Assembly (NCBI GenBank): GCA_001442925.1
Contig: LDXX01000007.1
Coordinates: 1 to 64,000 of the forward strand
Reading direction: 5' to 3'
Origin: Candidatus Kryptonium thompsonii
GTDB taxonomy: Bacteria; Bacteroidota; Ignavibacteria; Kryptoniales; Kryptoniaceae
Length of the DNA stretch: 64,000 nt
Positions 34,735-45,297 of the stretch are shown piece after piece. The notes beneath the pieces are model-generated. The model saw only the letters and a program-made list of their open reading frames with translations. It ran no database searches and was not told the origin of the DNA. Position 1 is the first letter of the stretch. Each line of letters starts with the position of its first letter. The position numbers were made by a program, and so were the translations under genes.

Positions 34735-35085
34735 ATGAAAATTCAATTTCTTTACTTTTCCGATTGTCCAAATCATAAGAAGGCGAGGGAGAATTTGTTG
34801 GAAGCGATAGAAAAGGCAAGGATAAAAGACTATCATATCGAGGAAATTGAGATAAAAACTGAGGAAGAGGCTTTAAAATATAAATTTCCTGGGTCTCCAA
34901 CAATAAGAGTTAATGGTGTTGATGTTGATCCATCTTATATGGATAGTGGAAATTACGGTATGACGTGTCGGATTTACAAAATTAATGGTCAATTTTATGG
35001 TGCGCCAACCGTTGAGATGATAAAGGAAGCTCTTGAGGACGCAAGTTTTTATGAAGGTATAAAAGAGGTTGGCGGATGTTGTTAA
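34735..35085 (+). CDS. thioredoxin-fold protein with CPNH motif
   Basis: A 116-residue cytoplasmic protein with a thioredoxin-like pattern: beta strand QFLYFSDCPNHKKARENLLE, then FPGSPTIRVNGVDVDP and GMTCRIYKINGQFYGAPT. The active site is C-P-N-H in place of CxxC, and another Cys lies in GMTC; the tail ends GGCC. Proteins of this type are often found beside mercury or arsenic genes, though none are seen here. It starts a plus-strand group with the methyltransferase (19 bases on). The function is unknown; a thiol or metal role is likely. Confidence 0.75.
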   Translation: MKIQFLYFSDCPNHKKARENLLEAIEKARIKDYHIEEIEIKTEEEALKYKFPGSPTIRVNGVDVDPSYMDSGNYGMTCRIYKINGQFYGAPTVEMIKEALEDASFYEGIKEVGGCC

Positions 35086-37303: not shown

Positions 37304-38653
37304 TTAAGCGACCCTGTTTCTCTTCAGATTGTACTTCTCGATTTTGTTGTAGAGTGTAACTCTATCTATGCCGAGAATTTTTGCTGATTGTGTTATGTTC
37401 CAATTTGTTTTATTTAAAATTTTGAGTATATGAGCTTTTTCAACCGCTTCAAGTGTTTCATTTTCAGGTTGTTCTTCTTCGATTAGTTGAATTGGTAAAT
37501 CTTGGGGTCTTATCGCGGGTGGTTTCGCAAGCACCATAGCTCTTTCAATGGCATTTTTTAGTTCTCTTACGTTTCCAGGCCAATCGTATCGTATTAGTAT
37601 ATCCATCGCTTCTGGTGAGATCTCAGTTATTGGTTTATGCATCATTGTTGCATATTTTTCAAGATAATATTTTGCTATTAATGGGATATCGCTTCTTCTT
37701 TCCCTAAGCGGTGGGATGAAGATTGTGAAAACATTAAGCCTATAATAAAGGTCTTCTCGGAATCTTCCTTCTTTCACTGCTTGTTCAAGGTCTGAGTTTG
37801 TTGCGCAAATGACTCTAAAATCACTTGTTATTATTTCGTTCCCACCAATTCTTGTAAATTGTTTTGTTTCAAGGACGCGGAGAAGTTGGATTTGCATTTT
37901 CAAGCTTATGGTTCCAACTTCATCGAGAAAAATTGTTCCTCCATCCGCAAGTTCAAATTTACCTTTTCTTCTGTAAAGCGCATCTGTGAAAGCTCCTTTT
38001 TCATGTCCGAAGAGTTCAGATTCAAGAAGCGTATCTGGAACAGCGCCGCAATTTACTGAGATAAATGGAAAATATCTTCTTGGGCTGTGTGCGTGAATTA
38101 ATCTTGCAACAAGTTCCTTACCTGTTCCGCTTTCGCCTCTTATCATTACGGTGGTATTTGTCGGGGCGACTGTTTTCGCAAGTTCGATTACTTTTTTAAT
38201 TTGCGGGCTCTCGCCGATGAGTTCTTCTCCCATGACAAGCTCGGATACATGTTCGCGCAGTTTAATGTTCTCATCCGTTAATTTTTTCTGCTTTAGGGCA
38301 TTTTTAACAAGGTGCGAAAGGTAATCTGGGTCAACTGGTTTTGTGATATAGTCGTAAGCTCCTTCTTTCAATGCTTGAACGGCGGAGTCAACAGATGCAA
38401 ATGCAGTAATTATGATAATTATAGCGTTCGGGTCAATCTCTTTTATCCTTTTTTGAAGTTCAAGCCCATCCATTCCGGGCATTTTAATATCAATGAAGAT
38501 TATATCCCATGGTCCTTCATTCATCAGTTTTAATGCTTGTGCTGCGTTTTCCGCTACGCCAACTTTATATCCATCTTGTGTAAACCATTTTGATAGGGAA
38601 TCTCTGACGATAAATTCGTCATCAACAACTAAAATGCTAAATTTGTGCGTCAT
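37304..38653 (-). CDS. NtrC-type sigma-54-dependent response regulator
   Basis: A 449-residue activator with three domains: receiver (about 1-120, phospho-acceptor D55 in IDIKMPG), AAA+ (about 145-380) and a C-terminal Fis-type helix-turn-helix (LNKTNWNITQSAKILGIDRVTLYNKI). Walker A is GESGTGKE at 163-170 and Walker B is GGTIFLDEVG. The sigma-54-contacting loop reads GAFTDA (210-215) where the common form is GAFTGA. Its start lies 17 bases inside the kinase gene, so the pair is coupled. Likely targets are the two sigma-54 promoter matches between 43715 and 44001. Confidence 0.95.
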   Translation of the reverse strand: MTHKFSILVVDDEFIVRDSLSKWFTQDGYKVGVAENAAQALKLMNEGPWDIIFIDIKMPGMDGLELQKRIKEIDPNAIIIIITAFASVDSAVQALKEGAYDYITKPVDPDYLSHLVKNALKQKKLTDENIKLREHVSELVMGEELIGESPQIKKVIELAKTVAPTNTTVMIRGESGTGKELVARLIHAHSPRRYFPFISVNCGAVPDTLLESELFGHEKGAFTDALYRRKGKFELADGGTIFLDEVGTISLKMQIQLLRVLETKQFTRIGGNEIITSDFRVICATNSDLEQAVKEGRFREDLYYRLNVFTIFIPPLRERRSDIPLIAKYYLEKYATMMHKPITEISPEAMDILIRYDWPGNVRELKNAIERAMVLAKPPAIRPQDLPIQLIEEEQPENETLEAVEKAHILKILNKTNWNITQSAKILGIDRVTLYNKIEKYNLKRNRVA

Positions 38654-40253
38654 AGCTGATGTTTAGTTTTTTGGGCAATGTAATTGTAAACGTTGTTCCT
38701 TGGTTTACTTTTGATTCAACTTTTATGCTTCCGTTATGTCTTTCGGCAATTCCATATGCGACCGCAAGGCCGAGTCCGGTTCCCTTGCCCTCTTTTTTCG
38801 TCGTAAAGAAAGGTTCAAATATATGGGGCAAGATATCTTCCGGTATTCCAATTCCAGTATCTGTCACTTTGATTTGAATTTTATCACTGTCAATTTCGTT
38901 AAGTTCGATTCTTAAAGTCCCACCTTCTGGCATTGCTTCAATTGAGTTTATTTCCATTGCGAGAAGCATTTGTTCAATTTGTTGTGCATCGCAAAAAACA
39001 AATACGGGATTTTCGGGGATATCAAGTTCAAGTTTTATATTGTTCATTTGAAGATGATGAGATATTAGAGCGACGCTTCTTTTTATCACCTGGCAAATGT
39101 CCTCATCTTTAAATTCTCCCACTTTTTGCTTTGAAAACAGAAGAAGGTTTTTAACTATATTTCCACATCGAGATGTTTCATCAATTATAATTGAAAGCTC
39201 GTTTAAAATTTCGTTTTTCTCCGCTTCGCTAATTTCACCATTTTGAAGTCTTCTCTTTAAAAGTTTGGCGTATGTTAGAACTCCTTCAAGTGGGTTATTA
39301 AGTTCATGTGCGACGGTTGCAGCAAGTTTTCCCAATGAAGCCATCTTTTCAATTTGCACCATATATGCGTGAGCTCTTTGAAGTTCCGCCGTCTTCTCAT
39401 TAACCTTTTGTTCAAGAAGCTTAGCCCAGTTTGTAAGTTCTTCGTGTGCTTGTTTTAATTTTTCGGTCATTTTGTTGAATGACTCGGCAAGCAAGCCAAT
39501 TTCATCTTTTGATTTGAAGTCAAGTTTGAAATCGAGGTTCCCGTTCATTATCTCAGTTGTCCCGTATGTCAATTTTTTTAATGGCACATTTACAAATTTC
39601 CAGATGAAAACTAAAACAAAGAACGAGATTACAAAAAATATCACCAATCCGCTCATATATTGAATTTCACTGAGGCGTTCTATGTTCTTATGCATATCTT
39701 TAAGCGAGATCATTACATCGAGAACACCGAGAATTGTTTGCTCTTTTTTATGTGCGTGACAATCAGCAGTGTAGCAAGACTCTTCATTTCTTATTGGATT
39801 AATCGCTCCAAGAATTTTGTATTCTTCGTCGGAGTGAAATATGCGGGTTAATTGCGATGCTTCTGCTGGGACATTTATTTTGCCATTTTTATGGCAGACA
39901 TTGCAAGCCTCACTTTCCATTGGTATTACTTTGCCAACCTCATCAGGTATAGTTGAGAAAGTGATCTCACCTCGTTTATTATAAATTCTGATAACTTTAA
40001 TTCCGGGTTGTTTTCCGAGCATGTTTATTATTTGGTAAATATCTTCTCTGCGATTACGGAGCATGCTGTGGTGCGTGGCTCGTTTAATAAGATCACTTGT
40101 TTTAATTGCGTTTTCTGTTGAGATGCGTAAAAATTGCTTGGTTTGCCATTGTATAATTAAAGCTGAGAAAATAATTGACACCCCAAGCACAAGTATAAAG
40201 ATGAGAATGAACAATTTAAATGCTAAACTTTGAAAAATTTTCATAGTTTTCAT
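38637..40253 (-). CDS. haem-binding sensor histidine kinase
   Basis: A 538-residue membrane kinase. Two transmembrane helices (about 12-35 and 198-219) bracket a periplasmic sensor with the c-type haem motif CNVCH at 117-121 and a C-x4-C-H motif (CYTADCH) at 160-166. A HAMP linker follows (about 220-275), then a coiled coil, HisKA (AATVAHELNNPLEG, H316) and HATPase (DTGIGIPEDILPHIF, KGTGLGL). Such haem motifs suggest redox or ligand sensing in the periplasm. It phosphorylates, by inference, the overlapping NtrC-type regulator. The ATG at 40253 has a weak ribosome site; a second ATG lies three codons on. Confidence 0.93.
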   Translation of the reverse strand: MKTMKIFQSLAFKLFILIFILVLGVSIIFSALIIQWQTKQFLRISTENAIKTSDLIKRATHHSMLRNRREDIYQIINMLGKQPGIKVIRIYNKRGEITFSTIPDEVGKVIPMESEACNVCHKNGKINVPAEASQLTRIFHSDEEYKILGAINPIRNEESCYTADCHAHKKEQTILGVLDVMISLKDMHKNIERLSEIQYMSGLVIFFVISFFVLVFIWKFVNVPLKKLTYGTTEIMNGNLDFKLDFKSKDEIGLLAESFNKMTEKLKQAHEELTNWAKLLEQKVNEKTAELQRAHAYMVQIEKMASLGKLAATVAHELNNPLEGVLTYAKLLKRRLQNGEISEAEKNEILNELSIIIDETSRCGNIVKNLLLFSKQKVGEFKDEDICQVIKRSVALISHHLQMNNIKLELDIPENPVFVFCDAQQIEQMLLAMEINSIEAMPEGGTLRIELNEIDSDKIQIKVTDTGIGIPEDILPHIFEPFFTTKKEGKGTGLGLAVAYGIAERHNGSIKVESKVNQGTTFTITLPKKLNISYDAQI

Positions 40254-40399: not shown

Positions 40400-41020
40400 T
40401 TAAAGAAGTTCAAAAACTTTATTTACGAGTGAAAGATATCGCTTGGTTCCAAGAAGTTCTTTTACTGTTTCAATGACCTGTCCCCCATCTTGAAGTGTTG
40501 GAACCGAAACTGGTTTAATTGATTCAGTCAGGTTTAAAAGTAGCTCTTTTTTAAGGATTTCGATTTTAGTTCGGTACAGCTCTAAAAATTCGGAATGCTT
40601 CATAAATCCGGCAATAGGGTCATCTGTTCTGATTTTGAAAAGCCAGCCCGCAAAATAGGGGTCTTGGTTTACGAGGTCGGGATCTTTAAGTAATGCTCTA
40701 TTTATTTCCAGAAGCTCGCCCCGGAAGGGCGAGCGAACCGTTAAAATTCCATCCCTGTGCATTATCCATGTGCACGGTGTGCCTTTGCCGAGAAACGAGG
40801 GGACTTGTAAAAATATTAATTCAGTGATTGGTGCAAAGAGGTAGACAATTGAGGCGCTTATGCCTACGTTTATAAACTCAGGTTCAGACTTTATCCATAT
40901 ATGCGACTTTGTATAAAATCTGTCCTTTGGGAAATCTACCCTTTCAAGGTTTTCTACGAAGCGTGAGATAACCTCAAGAGCGGTAGTTTCATGTATGTTT
41001 TTAAGTTTTTTATCGAGCAC
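40400..41020 (-). CDS. GcvH-like protein without lipoyl lysine (soluble)
   Basis: A 206-residue protein related to glycine-cleavage H protein. The core has YTKSHIWIKSEPEFINVGIS and SPFRGELLEINRALLKDPDLVNQDPYFAGWLFKI, like the H-protein hammerhead fold. The position of the lipoylated Lys (in ExVKAxSD) aligns with Asp in MHRDGILTVRSP, so it should not be lipoylated. It is the fourth gene of the redox operon, 14 bases after the NrfD-like gene. The role is unknown; it may be a structural or electron-transfer partner. Confidence 0.8.
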   Translation of the reverse strand: MLDKKLKNIHETTALEVISRFVENLERVDFPKDRFYTKSHIWIKSEPEFINVGISASIVYLFAPITELIFLQVPSFLGKGTPCTWIMHRDGILTVRSPFRGELLEINRALLKDPDLVNQDPYFAGWLFKIRTDDPIAGFMKHSEFLELYRTKIEILKKELLLNLTESIKPVSVPTLQDGGQVIETVKELLGTKRYLSLVNKVFELL

Positions 41021-41034
41021 CTGGGCAATTAAAT

Positions 41035-42213
41035 TTAATCTTTAAAAACTTCTCTTATTGGGATAACTTCAAAACCTTCTGCGATGATTTTTCTTTCTTC
41101 GACCTCAGGTGGAAAAACGGGTAGATGTTTCGCTATCAATCTAAATGCTGCAAAACCAAGCGCGACTATGAAGAGCGTCACCGATATCTCGGTCCATTTC
41201 GGGAAATAACCCGCCTGTGTATAATTTTCAAGCCCTGTAATACTCACATTCAACCTGTTGAGTATAAAACCAAGCACTGTAATTAACTGGGCAACAAATA
41301 AGCCTTTTTTACTTCCCCTTATTTTTGAGTTTGTCAGCAGCGCTATCGGCACAATTACACCAATCGCGAATTCAAGCCAGAACATTAGCGACTCGTAACC
41401 AAGGCTGAAAATGTGGGGGAAAAGTTTATAGTTAACTATGTCTTCAACCTTCAAGACAAAGTAAACCATTAATGCAACTGCGGTAACCTTTGCAAGTTTT
41501 GCCAATATGTGAATTTCTATTTCTCTTTTAAAAGCCCTTGAGCTTAAATACGATTCAATTGTAACCATTGCTGGGCCAACAGCAACAGCGGAGAGAAAGA
41601 AAAGGTAAGGCAGATTACTTGAATACCAAATTGGATGAAGTTTTTCGGGAACTATAAGATAAAGTGAGCCAAGTGAAGATTGATGTAAAGTTGAAAGTAT
41701 AACGCCAGCTACGACAAGTGGGATAGTTAAACTTTTTATTATTTTTTGTGGTTTTTCAAGTCGAAGTTTTTGAAAGAGCATTGGGCTAAATTCGAGGGCG
41801 AGAACCGTTGTGTAAAGCATAACGCACCATGCCACTTCAAACATAACTGATTCAGGGTTCCACATTATGATTGGGTGCCATATGTTCCATGGTTTTCCAA
41901 GATCATAAAGCAAAGCGACAATTACAAGGAGATAGCCTAAGAAAGCAGTTAAAATAGCGGATGGCAGAATTGATTTATATTCTTCAAGGTTAAAAATGTA
42001 AACAGCTGCAGCTATCACAAATCCACCAGCTGCAAGCCCAACGCCACATAAAACATCAAATCCAATCCATAATCCCCACGGGAAATTATCGCTCAAATTT
42101 GTAGCTGCGCCAAGTCCTTTCGTAAAACGAAGTATTGTCGAGTAGATGCCAAGTGCAACTATAATCCAAAAGACAAAACCCCAAAAAGTAAGTTTTGGAA
42201 CTTTTATCTTCAT
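41035..42213 (-). CDS. NrfD/HybB-type quinone-interacting membrane protein
   Basis: A 392-residue integral membrane protein with about ten hydrophobic helices and no cofactor motif. Signature segments include [34 protein letters not shown] and [10 protein letters not shown], as in HybB, the membrane subunit of hydrogenase-2 and related NrfD/PsrC modules that exchange electrons with quinones. It overlaps the ferredoxin gene by four bases (ATGA), so the two form one module. No hydrogenase or molybdopterin subunit is adjacent. Confidence 0.92.
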
Positions 42214-42980
42214 TTTCCATTCCCCTTTTTGTTGTTTTCTTCCATTTCTTTAAGCTTTTTTTGCAGACGTTGAACTTCATCTCTTCGCTTCGTTATCCAC
42301 CAGATTCCGAAAAGCAGCGTTCCACCCCAAAAGATGTAATTTGGGATTTTGGACATAATTTGTTCTGTAAAATGGGAAAGTGGAACTTCGGGCAAGTTGA
42401 CTTTAAAGCCAAGTTTATTCAATGGTCTATCCGCGAGGTAAAGAATAGATGTTCCTCCAGCTTCTTTTAAACCAAAAATGTGAGGGTAATACGTTTCGGG
42501 GTTTTCGTTAATTCTTCTTTTTGCTTCTTCTATCAGTTCTTCTCTTGTTCCAAATGTTCTTGCCTCAGCTGGACATGCTTCAACGCAAGCAGGAACTCCA
42601 CCTTTTTGTATCCTTTCATAACACATATCACATTTAGTAACTTTGGGATTTAGCTTATTCCACTGATATTTTGGCACATTGAATGGACATGCCTGTATAC
42701 AATATCTGCATCCCAAGCATTTTAATGGATCATAGACGACTGGACCAAGCTTTGTTTTTTGAAATGCGCCTACTGGGCAAACGGATGCGCATGTTGGTTT
42801 TTCACAGTGCATGCAAAGTCGTGGAACATAAATGCCGTCATGGTCTTCAACCGCTGTGTTTTGAATTGCAGAAAGCCTGTGCTCTTCCGTAATGGGATTG
42901 CCCCATCTTTCAGCGCAGGCTTCTTCGCAGGCATAACAGCCTATGCATCTGGTTATGTCAACTAAAATTCCATATTTCAT
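42210..42980 (-). CDS. HybA-like 4x[4Fe-4S] ferredoxin with membrane anchor
   Basis: A 256-residue electron-transfer protein. Four cysteine clusters are visible: [11 protein letters not shown] (12-22), [26 protein letters not shown] and [21 protein letters not shown] (the last two halves are separated by a loop). A single C-terminal helix (about 212-230, [15 protein letters not shown]) and a charged tail follow. HybA/DmsB-type proteins pass electrons between a catalytic subunit and an NrfD-like membrane protein, which here is the next gene. No signal peptide is present, so the side of the membrane is not fixed. Confidence 0.93.
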
Positions 42981-43001: not shown

Positions 43002-43670
43002 TTAAAGTTGTCCTATGAATTCTTTTTCAAATTTTTCCCAAGTTTTTTCATCAACATTTTGCAAAACTCCTTTTATCACGAGTCCACCATCTGCAAGGGT
43101 TGGTTCAAGCGTCGGTGAGAACTTTGGTGCCTCTCTACTGATGAACTCTCTGAATCTTTTTATTTCATTTTTCAACCACCGGGAAGCTTCACTTCCAATG
43201 AGCAAGTTTTTTACCTCAGAGGCAACATCCTCTGGCTCAATCATCAGAATCCAACCATTGAGGTACGGGTCTTTTAAAATTGTTTCTGGTGACTCGAGTA
43301 TGTTTGGATTAATGGCGGTTATCTTTCCAGTCACTGGTGAAAGGAATGTAAGTTCCCGAGCGCCTTGTTTGATTTTGAATATAGGCTCACCCTTTTTGAC
43401 CTTCTCTCCTAAAGGTAAAATTTCAATTGCGTCAACCTTTCCAAGTACCTTTGAGATGAAATCATCAACACCGACATAAACTTTCCCAGAAAATAGAAGT
43501 TCAAGCCATGTGTGTGCTTTGCTGAAAAAGTAACCGCGCGGGAGGATAAAACTTTCACTGCTTAACACAACCTGAGGTTGGTAAACTTCACGTTTTTTCT
43601 GGGCTCTTTGAACCAGATAGTCAATTGTTATGCAAATTAAAATTGTTGCTAATACGAAAAGTGCTACCAT
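43002..43670 (-). CDS. membrane-anchored GcvH-like protein without lipoyl lysine
   Basis: A 222-residue protein with one N-terminal helix (ALFVLATILICITIDYLV) and a GcvH-like domain: YFFSKAHTWLELLFSGKVYVG, FLSPVTGKITAINP and DPYLNGWILMIEP. The lipoyl Lys position is not a Lys (KQGARELTFLSPVTG). The start is the ATG at 43670 with GGAG about eight bases upstream; the open frame continues to a GTG at 43703, but that lies at the predicted transcription start. It is the first gene of the minus-strand redox operon, 21 bases before the ferredoxin gene. Confidence 0.82.
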   Translation of the reverse strand: MVALFVLATILICITIDYLVQRAQKKREVYQPQVVLSSESFILPRGYFFSKAHTWLELLFSGKVYVGVDDFISKVLGKVDAIEILPLGEKVKKGEPIFKIKQGARELTFLSPVTGKITAINPNILESPETILKDPYLNGWILMIEPEDVASEVKNLLIGSEASRWLKNEIKRFREFISREAPKFSPTLEPTLADGGLVIKGVLQNVDEKTWEKFEKEFIGQL

Positions 43671-43714
43671 GGTGGTTTCTCCAAAAATTTTATTTTTGTT
43701 CACATTAGATTAAG

Positions 43715-44055: not shown

Positions 44056-45177
44056 ATGAAAGGAAAATTAACACGTAAACAATTTCTTGAAGTTGCAGCA
44101 AAAAGCACCATTGGGGGAGCAGTAGGTTTTTCACTTATCAACCTTGCCAATTCTGTGAAAGCCCAAGCTCAAATTACTTGGCCGTTGCCTTATGAAATTC
44201 TTGATCCAGAGCATGTAAGAAAATTGGGACATCAATTTTACTGGACTGGAAAGGGATGTTCTTACGGTGCGTTTAAAGCGATATTTTATGCGATGCATGA
44301 AAAAGTTGGGGAACCGTTTACAAGTTTACTACCTTTGTGTGAAATGATGATTTATGGGCATGGTGGTGTTGTTGGATGGGGCACAACCTGCGGGGCATTG
44401 TTAGGGGCTTGTGCAGCAATTAATTTGTTCTGTGATAAGGCAACAACGGATAAAATTGCCCATGAGCTTATGGGTTGGTATACCCAGGCAGTATTCCCAA
44501 GTGACATAAGCAATCAATACGCTGTAAATGGACAATTTTACGATAATCGCTTGAATCAAGCTTTGCCACAGGCTAGCTGCGGCTCAGCGTTATGCCATGT
44601 TTCAGTTACCACTTGGTGCGTCACTTCTGGCTATAAAGCTGGCTCAACTGAGAGGAAGGAAAGATGCGGAAGGTTAACAGGTGATGTTGCAGCGAAAGCA
44701 GTTGAATTGTTAAATGCATGGAAGAGCGGACAATTCCAGCAGACATATCAACCACCGAGTGTCGTCGGCAGTTGCCTTGCATGTCACGGTTCAGCTTATA
44801 AGGACAATGTCAAGTCAGTTATGACCTGTGATCAATGCCATAAACCGAATTGGAGCCATCCACAGACGAAGGTAGAACAGCTTTCGGAGGTTGCGTTTAC
44901 ATTTAAATTGAGCCAAAATTATCCAAATCCGTTTAATCCATCAACGAGTATTGAGTTTTCAGTGCCGAAATCTTGCGATGTGAGGCTTGAAATTTATGAC
45001 ACATCAGGGAAGATTGTCAGAAGGTTGATCGATGGTGAAAGGTATGAGCCGGGAGTGTATAAAGTTGTATGGGATGGCACGGATGATCATGGGAATCGCG
45101 TGGCAAGTGGAATTTATTTGTATAGAATGATCGCGGGTAGTTATGTTGCAACTAAAAAGATGGTTCTTATGAAGTAA
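44056..45177 (+). CDS. split-Soret-type cytochrome c with T9SS sorting domain
   Basis: A 373-residue exported cytochrome. An N-terminal leader with LTRKQFLEVAAKS and a hydrophobic stretch resembles a Tat signal with R-K in place of R-R. The C_GCAxxG_C_C region has Cys at 68, 95, 112, 119 and 126 (for example TTCGALLGAC), and CHVSVTTWC plus KERCGRLTGDVAAKAVELLN fit split-Soret cytochromes. Two haem motifs are CLACH (240-244) and CDQCH (258-262); a C-x4-C-H lies at 175-181. Residues about 280-373 are a type IX sorting domain ([17 protein letters not shown] ... KKMVLMK). Surface exposure is therefore likely. It is divergent from the NrfD/ferredoxin operon, and a sigma-54 site precedes it. Confidence 0.88.
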   Translation: MKGKLTRKQFLEVAAKSTIGGAVGFSLINLANSVKAQAQITWPLPYEILDPEHVRKLGHQFYWTGKGCSYGAFKAIFYAMHEKVGEPFTSLLPLCEMMIYGHGGVVGWGTTCGALLGACAAINLFCDKATTDKIAHELMGWYTQAVFPSDISNQYAVNGQFYDNRLNQALPQASCGSALCHVSVTTWCVTSGYKAGSTERKERCGRLTGDVAAKAVELLNAWKSGQFQQTYQPPSVVGSCLACHGSAYKDNVKSVMTCDQCHKPNWSHPQTKVEQLSEVAFTFKLSQNYPNPFNPSTSIEFSVPKSCDVRLEIYDTSGKIVRRLIDGERYEPGVYKVVWDGTDDHGNRVASGIYLYRMIAGSYVATKKMVLMK

Positions 45178-45185
45178 ACCCACTG

Positions 45186-45214
45186 CCCCGGCAGATGCCG
45201 GGGTTTTTATTTTT
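45186..45214 (+). terminator. terminator after the split-Soret cytochrome gene
   Basis: A 7-bp stem CCCCGGC / GCCGGGG with loop AGAT is followed by TTTTTATTTTTT, nine bases after the stop codon. It is a strong rho-independent terminator and isolates the cytochrome transcript from the fatty-acid operon. Confidence 0.92.
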
Positions 45215-45297
45215 TGTCCCCTACCTTCTATATCCCATTTTGGCTTGTATATAACTTCTTTTTTGTTTATATTTAATTCAAAATTTTTAAAATTTGG

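What the first reader, a model, noticed from the sequence alone, without database searches (positions are those of the whole stretch)
44056..45177. Cytochrome with Tat-like leader, split-Soret core and T9SS sorting domain
The leader has R-K before a hydrophobic stretch, the core resembles split-Soret cytochromes with two CxxCH motifs, and the last 90 residues are a type IX sorting domain. If exported by Tat or Sec and then T9SS, a haem protein would reach the cell surface. Surface cytochromes sent by T9SS are little described.
Basis: partly seen in the sequence, partly recalled or inferred. Interest (0 to 1): 0.75.

Follow-up and report, generated by a model that had tools for sequence, protein, structure and literature searches.

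The report
Split-Soret cytochrome with surface-export tail
A two-haem electron-carrying protein that other bacteria are expected to keep inside the cell envelope carries, in this hot-spring bacterium and across its relatives, a tail that should send it to the cell surface, behind a leader resembling the export signal for pre-folded proteins, a route that reviews of this secretion system do not describe.

Summary
Window 44056-45177 (+) encodes 373 aa: leader MKGKLTRKQFL, a split-Soret cytochrome core (two CxxCH, four conserved cysteines) and a C-terminal T9SS type A sorting domain. An AlphaFold model matches 1h21 over the core (Z 28.9) and PorU's own sorting domain over residues 281-373 (Z 11.3). 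The tail is under purifying selection. Of 80 homologues from many phyla, all 54 tailed ones come from Bacteroidota/FCB records (two 'Trueperaceae' and two unnamed bins aside); the 26 tailless come from phyla not known for T9SS and mostly end just after the last haem. The genome has SprA, PorU, TatC, Ccm-type proteins and three Sec-type, T9SS-tailed multihaem cytochromes.

New points: (1) the leader descends from a Tat signal: homologues elsewhere read SRRxFL; tailed ones keep R and F but never the second R (0 of 54, mostly RK). A 2023 review says all T9SS effectors use Sec. (2) In relatives the gene often sits in arsenic-resistance neighbourhoods (ACR3 within 10 kb in 6 of 17 genomes, 0.09 expected). 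(3) In the window it faces an HmcBC-GcvH-kinase cluster, shared with thermophilic Acidobacteria whose copy lacks the tail.

Surface location, Tat use and electron partner are inferred.

The parts
44056..45177 (+). Whole gene: Tat-like leader, split-Soret cytochrome core, T9SS type A sorting domain (373 aa plus stop)
44056..44175 (+). Leader, residues 1-40; motif TRKQFL at 44071-44088; weak hydrophobic stretch; basic residue (K35) before the likely cleavage region
   Evidence: sequence; R7 and F10 invariant in 54 homologues; hydrophobicity and c-region comparison
44176..44859 (+). Split-Soret cytochrome core, residues 41-268
   Evidence: NF047622 and PF09719, 1h21 Z 28.9 over 224 residues
44257..44667 (+). 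Span holding the four conserved cysteines C68, C112, C180, C204, candidate ligands of the non-haem iron centre
   Evidence: invariant in 54 homologues and present in the D. desulfuricans protein; iron centre by analogy
44773..44787 (+). First haem motif CLACH, residues 240-244
   Evidence: invariant cysteines and histidine
44827..44841 (+). Second haem motif CDQCH, residues 258-262
   Evidence: invariant cysteines and histidine
44857..44859 (+). H268, kept in 90% or more of homologues and near the native C-terminus of tailless ones; possible haem ligand
   Evidence: ligand role is inference
44896..45174 (+). T9SS type A sorting domain, residues 281-373, Ig-like fold
   Evidence: TIGR04183 above cut-off; model matches 6za2 PorU, 8qb1 mirolase CTD, 8glk NucA CTD
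45186..45215 (+). Terminator-like hairpin (CCCCGGCAGATGCCGGGG then T-rich), suggesting the transcript ends here
   Evidence: read directly; not tested further
43002..43703 (-). GcvH-like protein with N-terminal membrane stretch, divergent neighbour
   Evidence: PF01597 E 1.1e-19
42210..42980 (-). HmcB-like iron-sulfur protein
   Evidence: NF045715 E 5.8e-71, below its cut-off
41035..42213 (-). HmcC/NrfD-like membrane protein, probable quinone-side subunit
   Evidence: PF03916 above cut-off, NF045714 E 3.7e-105, below its cut-off
40400..41020 (-). Second GcvH-like protein
   Evidence: PF01597 E 5.7e-15
38637..40253 (-). Sensor histidine kinase with a CxxCH motif in its extracytoplasmic part
   Evidence: clustered with kinases beside the acidobacterial genes
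37304..38653 (-). Sigma-54 activating response regulator next to the kinase
   Evidence: sequence; homologue grouped with the PAS-sigma54 cluster

Best explanation
The gene makes a small dihaem electron-transfer protein that this lineage sends to the cell surface instead of keeping in the periplasm. Proposed steps: (1) the protein leaves the cytoplasm by Tat through its RK leader, with its four-cysteine iron centre already formed [inferred]; (2) the Ccm system attaches two haems at the C-terminal CxxCH motifs in the periplasm [inferred; CcmF/CcmC-type proteins shown]; (3) the folded protein is recognised by its C-terminal sorting domain, passes the SprA channel, and PorU removes the domain, leaving the cytochrome on or outside the cell [inferred; SprA, PorU and the domain shown]; (4) it passes electrons outside the outer membrane, possibly together with the genome's larger T9SS-tailed multihaem cytochromes [inferred]. 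The sorting domain is joined just after the native end of the cytochrome, so the dihaem fold need not be disturbed.
For: Core and tail identified by profiles, PDB sequence search and an AF2 model of mean pLDDT 86.8. Tail presence follows lineage: 54 of 80 homologues are tailed, all in Bacteroidota/FCB records apart from two 'Trueperaceae' bins and two loci titled only 'bacterium'; the 26 tailless mostly end near the last haem, a few with unrelated ends. All 39 tailed members of A3 match TIGR04183. The tail is under purifying selection, dN/dS 0.017-0.094 in three comparisons with the window gene. SprA 998 bits, PorU 1020 bits, TatC 235 bits, Cytochrom_C_asm proteins present; 55 T9SS tails. Leader: R7 and F10 invariant over 54 proteins from many phyla; tailless homologues have RR in 19 of 23; peak hydrophobicity 1.85 +/- 0.21 in tailed, 1.92 in tailless, against 2.79 +/- 0.32 in the genome's Sec-type T9SS cargo; a basic residue follows the hydrophobic stretch in 42 of 50, against 14 of 43.
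Against: No localisation data. The second arginine is absent in all 54 tailed leaders scored, and six Bacteroidetes/Bacteroidales homologues have S, T, G, Q or N there, unlike the RR of canonical Tat substrates in the window genome. The general Tat models TIGR01409 and PF10518 do not hit the window leader. In the window the nearest redox genes encode an inner-membrane complex (HmcBC-like), a poor partner for a surface protein, and thermophilic Acidobacteria with the same neighbours have no tail.
Confidence: 0.6

Rival explanations
1. The tailed proteins changed from Tat to Sec export: the leader descends from a Tat signal, the second arginine was lost because Sec took over, and T9SS then delivers the protein as for other cargo. 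Any iron centre would be assembled outside the cytoplasm or be absent.
For: Second arginine never kept in 54 tailed leaders; quite different residues in six Bacteroidetes/Bacteroidales homologues. The 2023 review PMC10202324 states that all T9SS effectors have a Sec signal. All six of those genomes still have TatC, so loss of the motif is not due to loss of Tat.
Against: First arginine and F10 are invariant, low hydrophobicity and the basic c-region persist; none is needed for Sec. The four cysteines are all kept.
Confidence: 0.27
2. The protein stays in the periplasm or on the inner leaflet of the outer membrane, acting as electron carrier for the divergently encoded HmcBC-GcvH complex; the sorting domain is inactive or only an anchor.
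For: Kryptonia and thermophilic Acidobacteria share HmcC/GcvH/haem-kinase neighbours, and the acidobacterial copy has no tail. D. alaskensis split-Soret cytochromes are described as periplasmic (PMC4215793).
Against: Tail conserved, above cut-off and under purifying selection; T9SS machinery present; tail kept across lineages.
Confidence: 0.1
3. On the question of role: in many Bacteroidota the surface cytochrome serves arsenic or another thiol-reactive element (detoxification or redox conversion outside the cell) rather than mineral respiration.
For: ACR3 lies within 10 kb of the gene in 6 of 17 genomes with both, 0.094 expected, P about 9e-10 treating genomes as independent. 18 of 54 tailed loci have ACR3, ArsC, ArsF, ArsG or ArsM within about 7 kb, 0 of 26 tailless (family names). 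Thioredoxin, CcdA-like, PAS-sigma54 and TPR genes precede it in many Ignavibacteria.
Against: The window genome has no ACR3 and its copy sits by other genes. The genomes are related, so the P value is optimistic. Co-location shows no chemistry; arsenic clusters also collect general thiol-redox genes.
Confidence: 0.3

Closest known systems
Split-Soret cytochrome c of Desulfovibrio desulfuricans ATCC 27774 (PDB 1h21)
   Same: Core fold (Z 28.9, 34% identity over 224 residues), two CxxCH, four conserved cysteines
   Different: The window protein has a T9SS sorting domain and an RK leader; it scores 170.5 against the 400-bit cut-off of the Desulfovibrio equivalog model
T9SS type A cargo (for example NucA and the mirolase sorting domain; PorU's own C-terminal domain)
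   Same: C-terminal Ig-like sorting domain, TIGR04183 above cut-off, structural match to CTDs 6za2, 8qb1, 8glk
   Different: The passenger is a c-type cytochrome, and the leader is Tat-like instead of Sec
Outer-membrane multihaem cytochromes of porin-cytochrome conduits (MtrC type)
   Same: Would place haem on the cell surface
   Different: Delivered by T9SS instead of as a lipoprotein through other routes (general knowledge); only two haems; unrelated fold; no porin partner noticed among the neighbouring genes
C_GCAxxG_C_C family (PF09719, TIGR01909)
   Same: Shares the cysteine-rich redox domain (PF09719 above cut-off)
   Different: The family models do not include the haem region or the sorting tail; TIGR01909 is below cut-off here

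Membership tests
Split-Soret cytochrome fold family | Homology over the whole core to 1h21 | tested here: met
   phmmer E 7e-36, profile E 2.7e-61, Z 28.9
Split-Soret cytochrome fold family | Two CxxCH haem motifs near the C-terminus of the core | tested here: met
   residues 240-244 and 258-262, invariant in 54 homologues
Split-Soret cytochrome fold family | Cysteines of the extra iron centre kept | tested here: met
   C68, C112, C180, C204 invariant; that they bind iron was not tested
Split-Soret cytochrome fold family | Dimer with stacked haems and a split Soret band | not testable with these tools
   needs purified protein
Desulfovibrio split-Soret equivalog NF047622 | Score above the curated cut-off of 400 bits | tested here: not met
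   170.5 bits; a homologue, not filed under this equivalog
T9SS type A cargo | C-terminal sorting domain above cut-off at the very C-terminus | tested here: met
   TIGR04183 32.7 bits, cut-off 23, residues 289-370 of 373
T9SS type A cargo | T9SS machinery in the same genome | tested here: met
   SprA, PorU; other components not searched
T9SS type A cargo | N-terminal Sec signal peptide | tested here: inconclusive
   leader is less hydrophobic than the 43 Sec-type T9SS cargo leaders of the genome and has a Tat-derived motif
T9SS type A cargo | Surface delivery and removal of the sorting domain | not testable with these tools
   needs an experiment
Canonical Tat substrate | Consecutive arginines in S/T-R-R-x-F-L | tested here: not met
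   TRKQFL; second R absent in all 54 tailed homologues scored
Canonical Tat substrate | Remaining consensus, weak hydrophobicity and basic c-region | tested here: met
Canonical Tat substrate | Hit by a general Tat signal model | tested here: not met
   not hit at E up to 1 in the window protein; TIGR01409 search of the genome does not list it at E up to 10
Canonical Tat substrate | TatC in the genome | tested here: met
   but also in 98 of 100 relatives, so uninformative

The most novel reading that the evidence does not exclude
A Tat-to-T9SS route exists: a class of T9SS cargo leaves the cytoplasm already folded with a metal centre through Tat, using a leader with a systematically altered second arginine, gains haems in the periplasm and is then sent whole to the surface. 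It would need three maturation or transport systems in series and would break the rule that all T9SS cargo uses Sec.
Probability: 0.5. Interest if true: 0.78.

Novelty: new variant of a known kind. Interest (0 to 1): 0.57.

Why it matters
If true, it adds a delivery route for surface redox proteins in Bacteroidota and relatives, distinct from porin-cytochrome conduits, and offers a compact, widely conserved test protein for two open points: whether T9SS can carry Tat substrates, and whether it carries cofactor-bearing (haem) proteins. It also gives a genomic context (arsenic-resistance neighbourhoods in Ignavibacteria and relatives) for split-Soret cytochromes, whose role is unknown; D. alaskensis mutants showed no phenotype (PMC4215793).

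Tried and rejected
A third haem site (CGSALCH) was considered and rejected: its first cysteine is not conserved. An accidental tail from a frame or assembly artefact was rejected: independent genomes carry it and it is under purifying selection. A DNA-pattern search for other S/T-R-K-x-F-L leaders in the genome gave 77 hits against 74 for the reversed control, so it was uninformative. TatC presence is too common to discriminate. System II cytochrome maturation (ResB) was not found, whereas Cytochrom_C_asm proteins were. A test of one origin of the tail was inconclusive (p-AU 0.066); a second constrained search did not finish. Paired comparison of tail and twin arginine has only 3-4 independent changes and cannot reach significance. 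Ten paper searches found no T9SS-tailed cytochrome described in the open-access library (among them); subscription papers and supplements were not covered.

Full report
WHAT IS THERE. The ORF at 44056-45177 (+) is real and complete. It encodes 373 aa in three parts. Residues 1-40 are a leader (MKGKLTRKQFLEVAAKSTIGGAVGFSLINLANSVKAQAQI). Residues about 41-268 are a split-Soret cytochrome core: PF09719 54 bits against a cut-off of 27, NF047622 E 4.7e-50, 1h21 E 7e-36. Residues about 281-373 are a T9SS type A sorting domain: TIGR04183 32.7 bits against 23. An AlphaFold2 model from 54 homologues has mean pLDDT 86.8, low mainly in the leader. The core matches 1h21 with Z 28.9 over 224 residues. The tail matches PorU's C-terminal domain (6za2, Z 11.3), the mirolase sorting domain (8qb1, 8.8) and the NucA sorting domain bound to the T9SS (8glk, 8.3); many unrelated Ig-like folds also score 8-9.7, so the sequence profile, not the fold alone, identifies the tail. 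A terminator-like hairpin follows the stop (by eye).

WHERE IT COMES FROM. The nearest named relatives are 'Candidatus Kryptonia' and 'Ca. Thermokryptus' records; the genome is 2.59 Mb in 18 contigs. The Kryptonia description reports 811 proteins with this sorting domain and proposes iron respiration, without naming this protein in the main text (PMC4737851). In our genome 55 T9SS tails are found, with SprA (998 bits), PorU (1020 bits), TatC and three Cytochrom_C_asm proteins (CcmF/CcmC assignment by size and neighbourhood is inference).

A CONSERVED ARCHITECTURE, TIED TO LINEAGE. Core and tail, with the leader wherever the N-terminus is present, occur together in 28 loci found in 100 genomes of the class. 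A scan of bacterial and archaeal genomes gave 80 homologues from many phyla. Of these, 54 have a C-terminal extension of more than 80 residues. All come from Bacteroidota, Ignavibacteria, Caldithrix, KSB1 and similar records, except two 'Trueperaceae' bins and two loci titled only 'bacterium'. The other 26 (Chloroflexi, Bacillota, Spirochaetes, Archaea, Acidobacteria, a Desulfobacteraceae; two are broken sequences) mostly stop 1-10 residues after the last haem; a few have unrelated ends of 20-60 residues. In a 54-member alignment all 39 tailed members match TIGR04183. In the core tree tail presence needs 4 changes. Three thermophilic Acidobacteria (no tail, RK leader) group with Kryptonia (97/99), which fits transfer from this group with loss of the tail, though the direction is not proven; the Kryptonia rows themselves are split by them only weakly (85/38). 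Within the genus, dN/dS of the tail against the window gene is 0.017-0.094, lower than the core in two of three pairs. The tail is therefore maintained.

THE LEADER. Tailless homologues have canonical Tat motifs (S/T-R-R-x-F-L type) in 19 of 23 scored; several also show a lipobox-like cysteine (by eye). In the tailed ones the first arginine and the phenylalanine are invariant, but the second arginine is absent in all 54 scored: mostly K, and S, T, G, Q or N in several Bacteroidetes/Bacteroidales homologues. Peak hydrophobicity is 1.85 +/- 0.21, like the tailless Tat leaders (1.92 +/- 0.24) and unlike 43 Sec-type T9SS cargo leaders of this genome (2.79 +/- 0.32). A basic residue follows the hydrophobic stretch in 42 of 50, against 14 of 43 in Sec-type cargo. 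Against Tat: the clear Tat leaders found in this genome have RR, and general Tat models do not hit the window leader. From memory, a single R-to-K change is tolerated by E. coli Tat; this was not tested here. The 2023 review PMC10202324 says that all T9SS effectors possess a Sec signal, and a 2022 review says that T9SS substrates use the Sec machinery (PMC9251779). I judge Tat use more likely than Sec, about 2 to 1.

HOW IT MIGHT WORK. By analogy with D. desulfuricans, the core should be a dimer with two stacked haems per subunit; cited titles and text report stacked haems and a further iron centre (PMC5701242, PMC5928083). The four cysteines are invariant here. The sorting domain starts about a dozen residues past H268, which is near the native end of tailless homologues, so it can be removed without touching the haems. 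The genome also has three larger cytochromes with T9SS tails and Sec-type leaders: 7, 8 and 9 CxxCH (L172, L179, L180). The tail of the 7-haem one is the closest found in the genome to the window tail (61%). A T9SS-delivered set of surface haem proteins is thus plausible in this organism.

GENOMIC CONTEXT AND ROLE. In the window the gene faces GcvH-like, HmcB-like, HmcC-like, GcvH-like, a haem-motif kinase and a sigma-54 regulator. Members of the same set neighbour the gene in the three thermophilic Acidobacteria. In Ignavibacteria a thioredoxin, a CcdA-like protein, a PAS-sigma54 regulator and a TPR protein precede it, often within an arsenic cluster. Among 17 class genomes with both genes, ACR3 lies within 10 kb of the cytochrome in 6, against 0.094 expected; relatedness makes the P value of 9e-10 optimistic. 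The window genome has no ACR3, so the arsenic link may not apply to it.

VERDICT. A real, conserved new variant of the split-Soret cytochrome. Its parts are known kinds; the combination, and above all the Tat-derived leader on a T9SS cargo, is unusual. What stops a higher score is that the domain annotations alone would already suggest a surface cytochrome, and that the most interesting step (Tat followed by T9SS) rests on leader features only.

Noticed in passing
L172:1475-3322, L179:281-1657, L180:499-2586 (window genome, contigs C18, C9, C2): Three multihaem cytochromes (7, 8 and 9 CxxCH) with Sec-type leaders and T9SS sorting domains; L180 also matches an MtrC/MtrF-like domain above cut-off.
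   Followed up: partly
loci L085-L160 of Bacteroidota/FCB, for example L119, L149, L152, L160: The tailed split-Soret gene often lies with ACR3, ArsC, ArsM, ArsF/ArsG, ArsP-type permease, thioredoxin and CcdA-like genes.
   Followed up: partly
window 38637-40253 (-): Sensor kinase whose extracytoplasmic part carries CxxCH (CNVCH) and a CX4CH-like motif: possible haem-based sensor, with relatives beside the acidobacterial copies.
   Followed up: no
window 40400-41020 and 43002-43703 (-): Two GcvH-like proteins flank HmcBC-like genes; by eye the lipoyl lysine position does not look conserved in the membrane-anchored one.
   Followed up: no
L130, L143: Two bins titled Trueperaceae (Deinococcota) carry T9SS-tailed copies that group with an Ignavibacteriales copy; misbinning or transfer.
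   Followed up: no
G000:C3:252296-256504: A second PorU-like ORF of 1613 aa, below the PorU cut-off, besides the clear PorU on C13.
   Followed up: no
L125, L132: Bacillota homologues have an extra stretch between leader and core that looks like a copper-amine-oxidase-type N-terminal domain (by eye).
   Followed up: no
window 34735-35085 (+): Small DUF2703 thioredoxin-like protein, resembling one found in the ars-linked loci of Ignavibacteria.
   Followed up: partly
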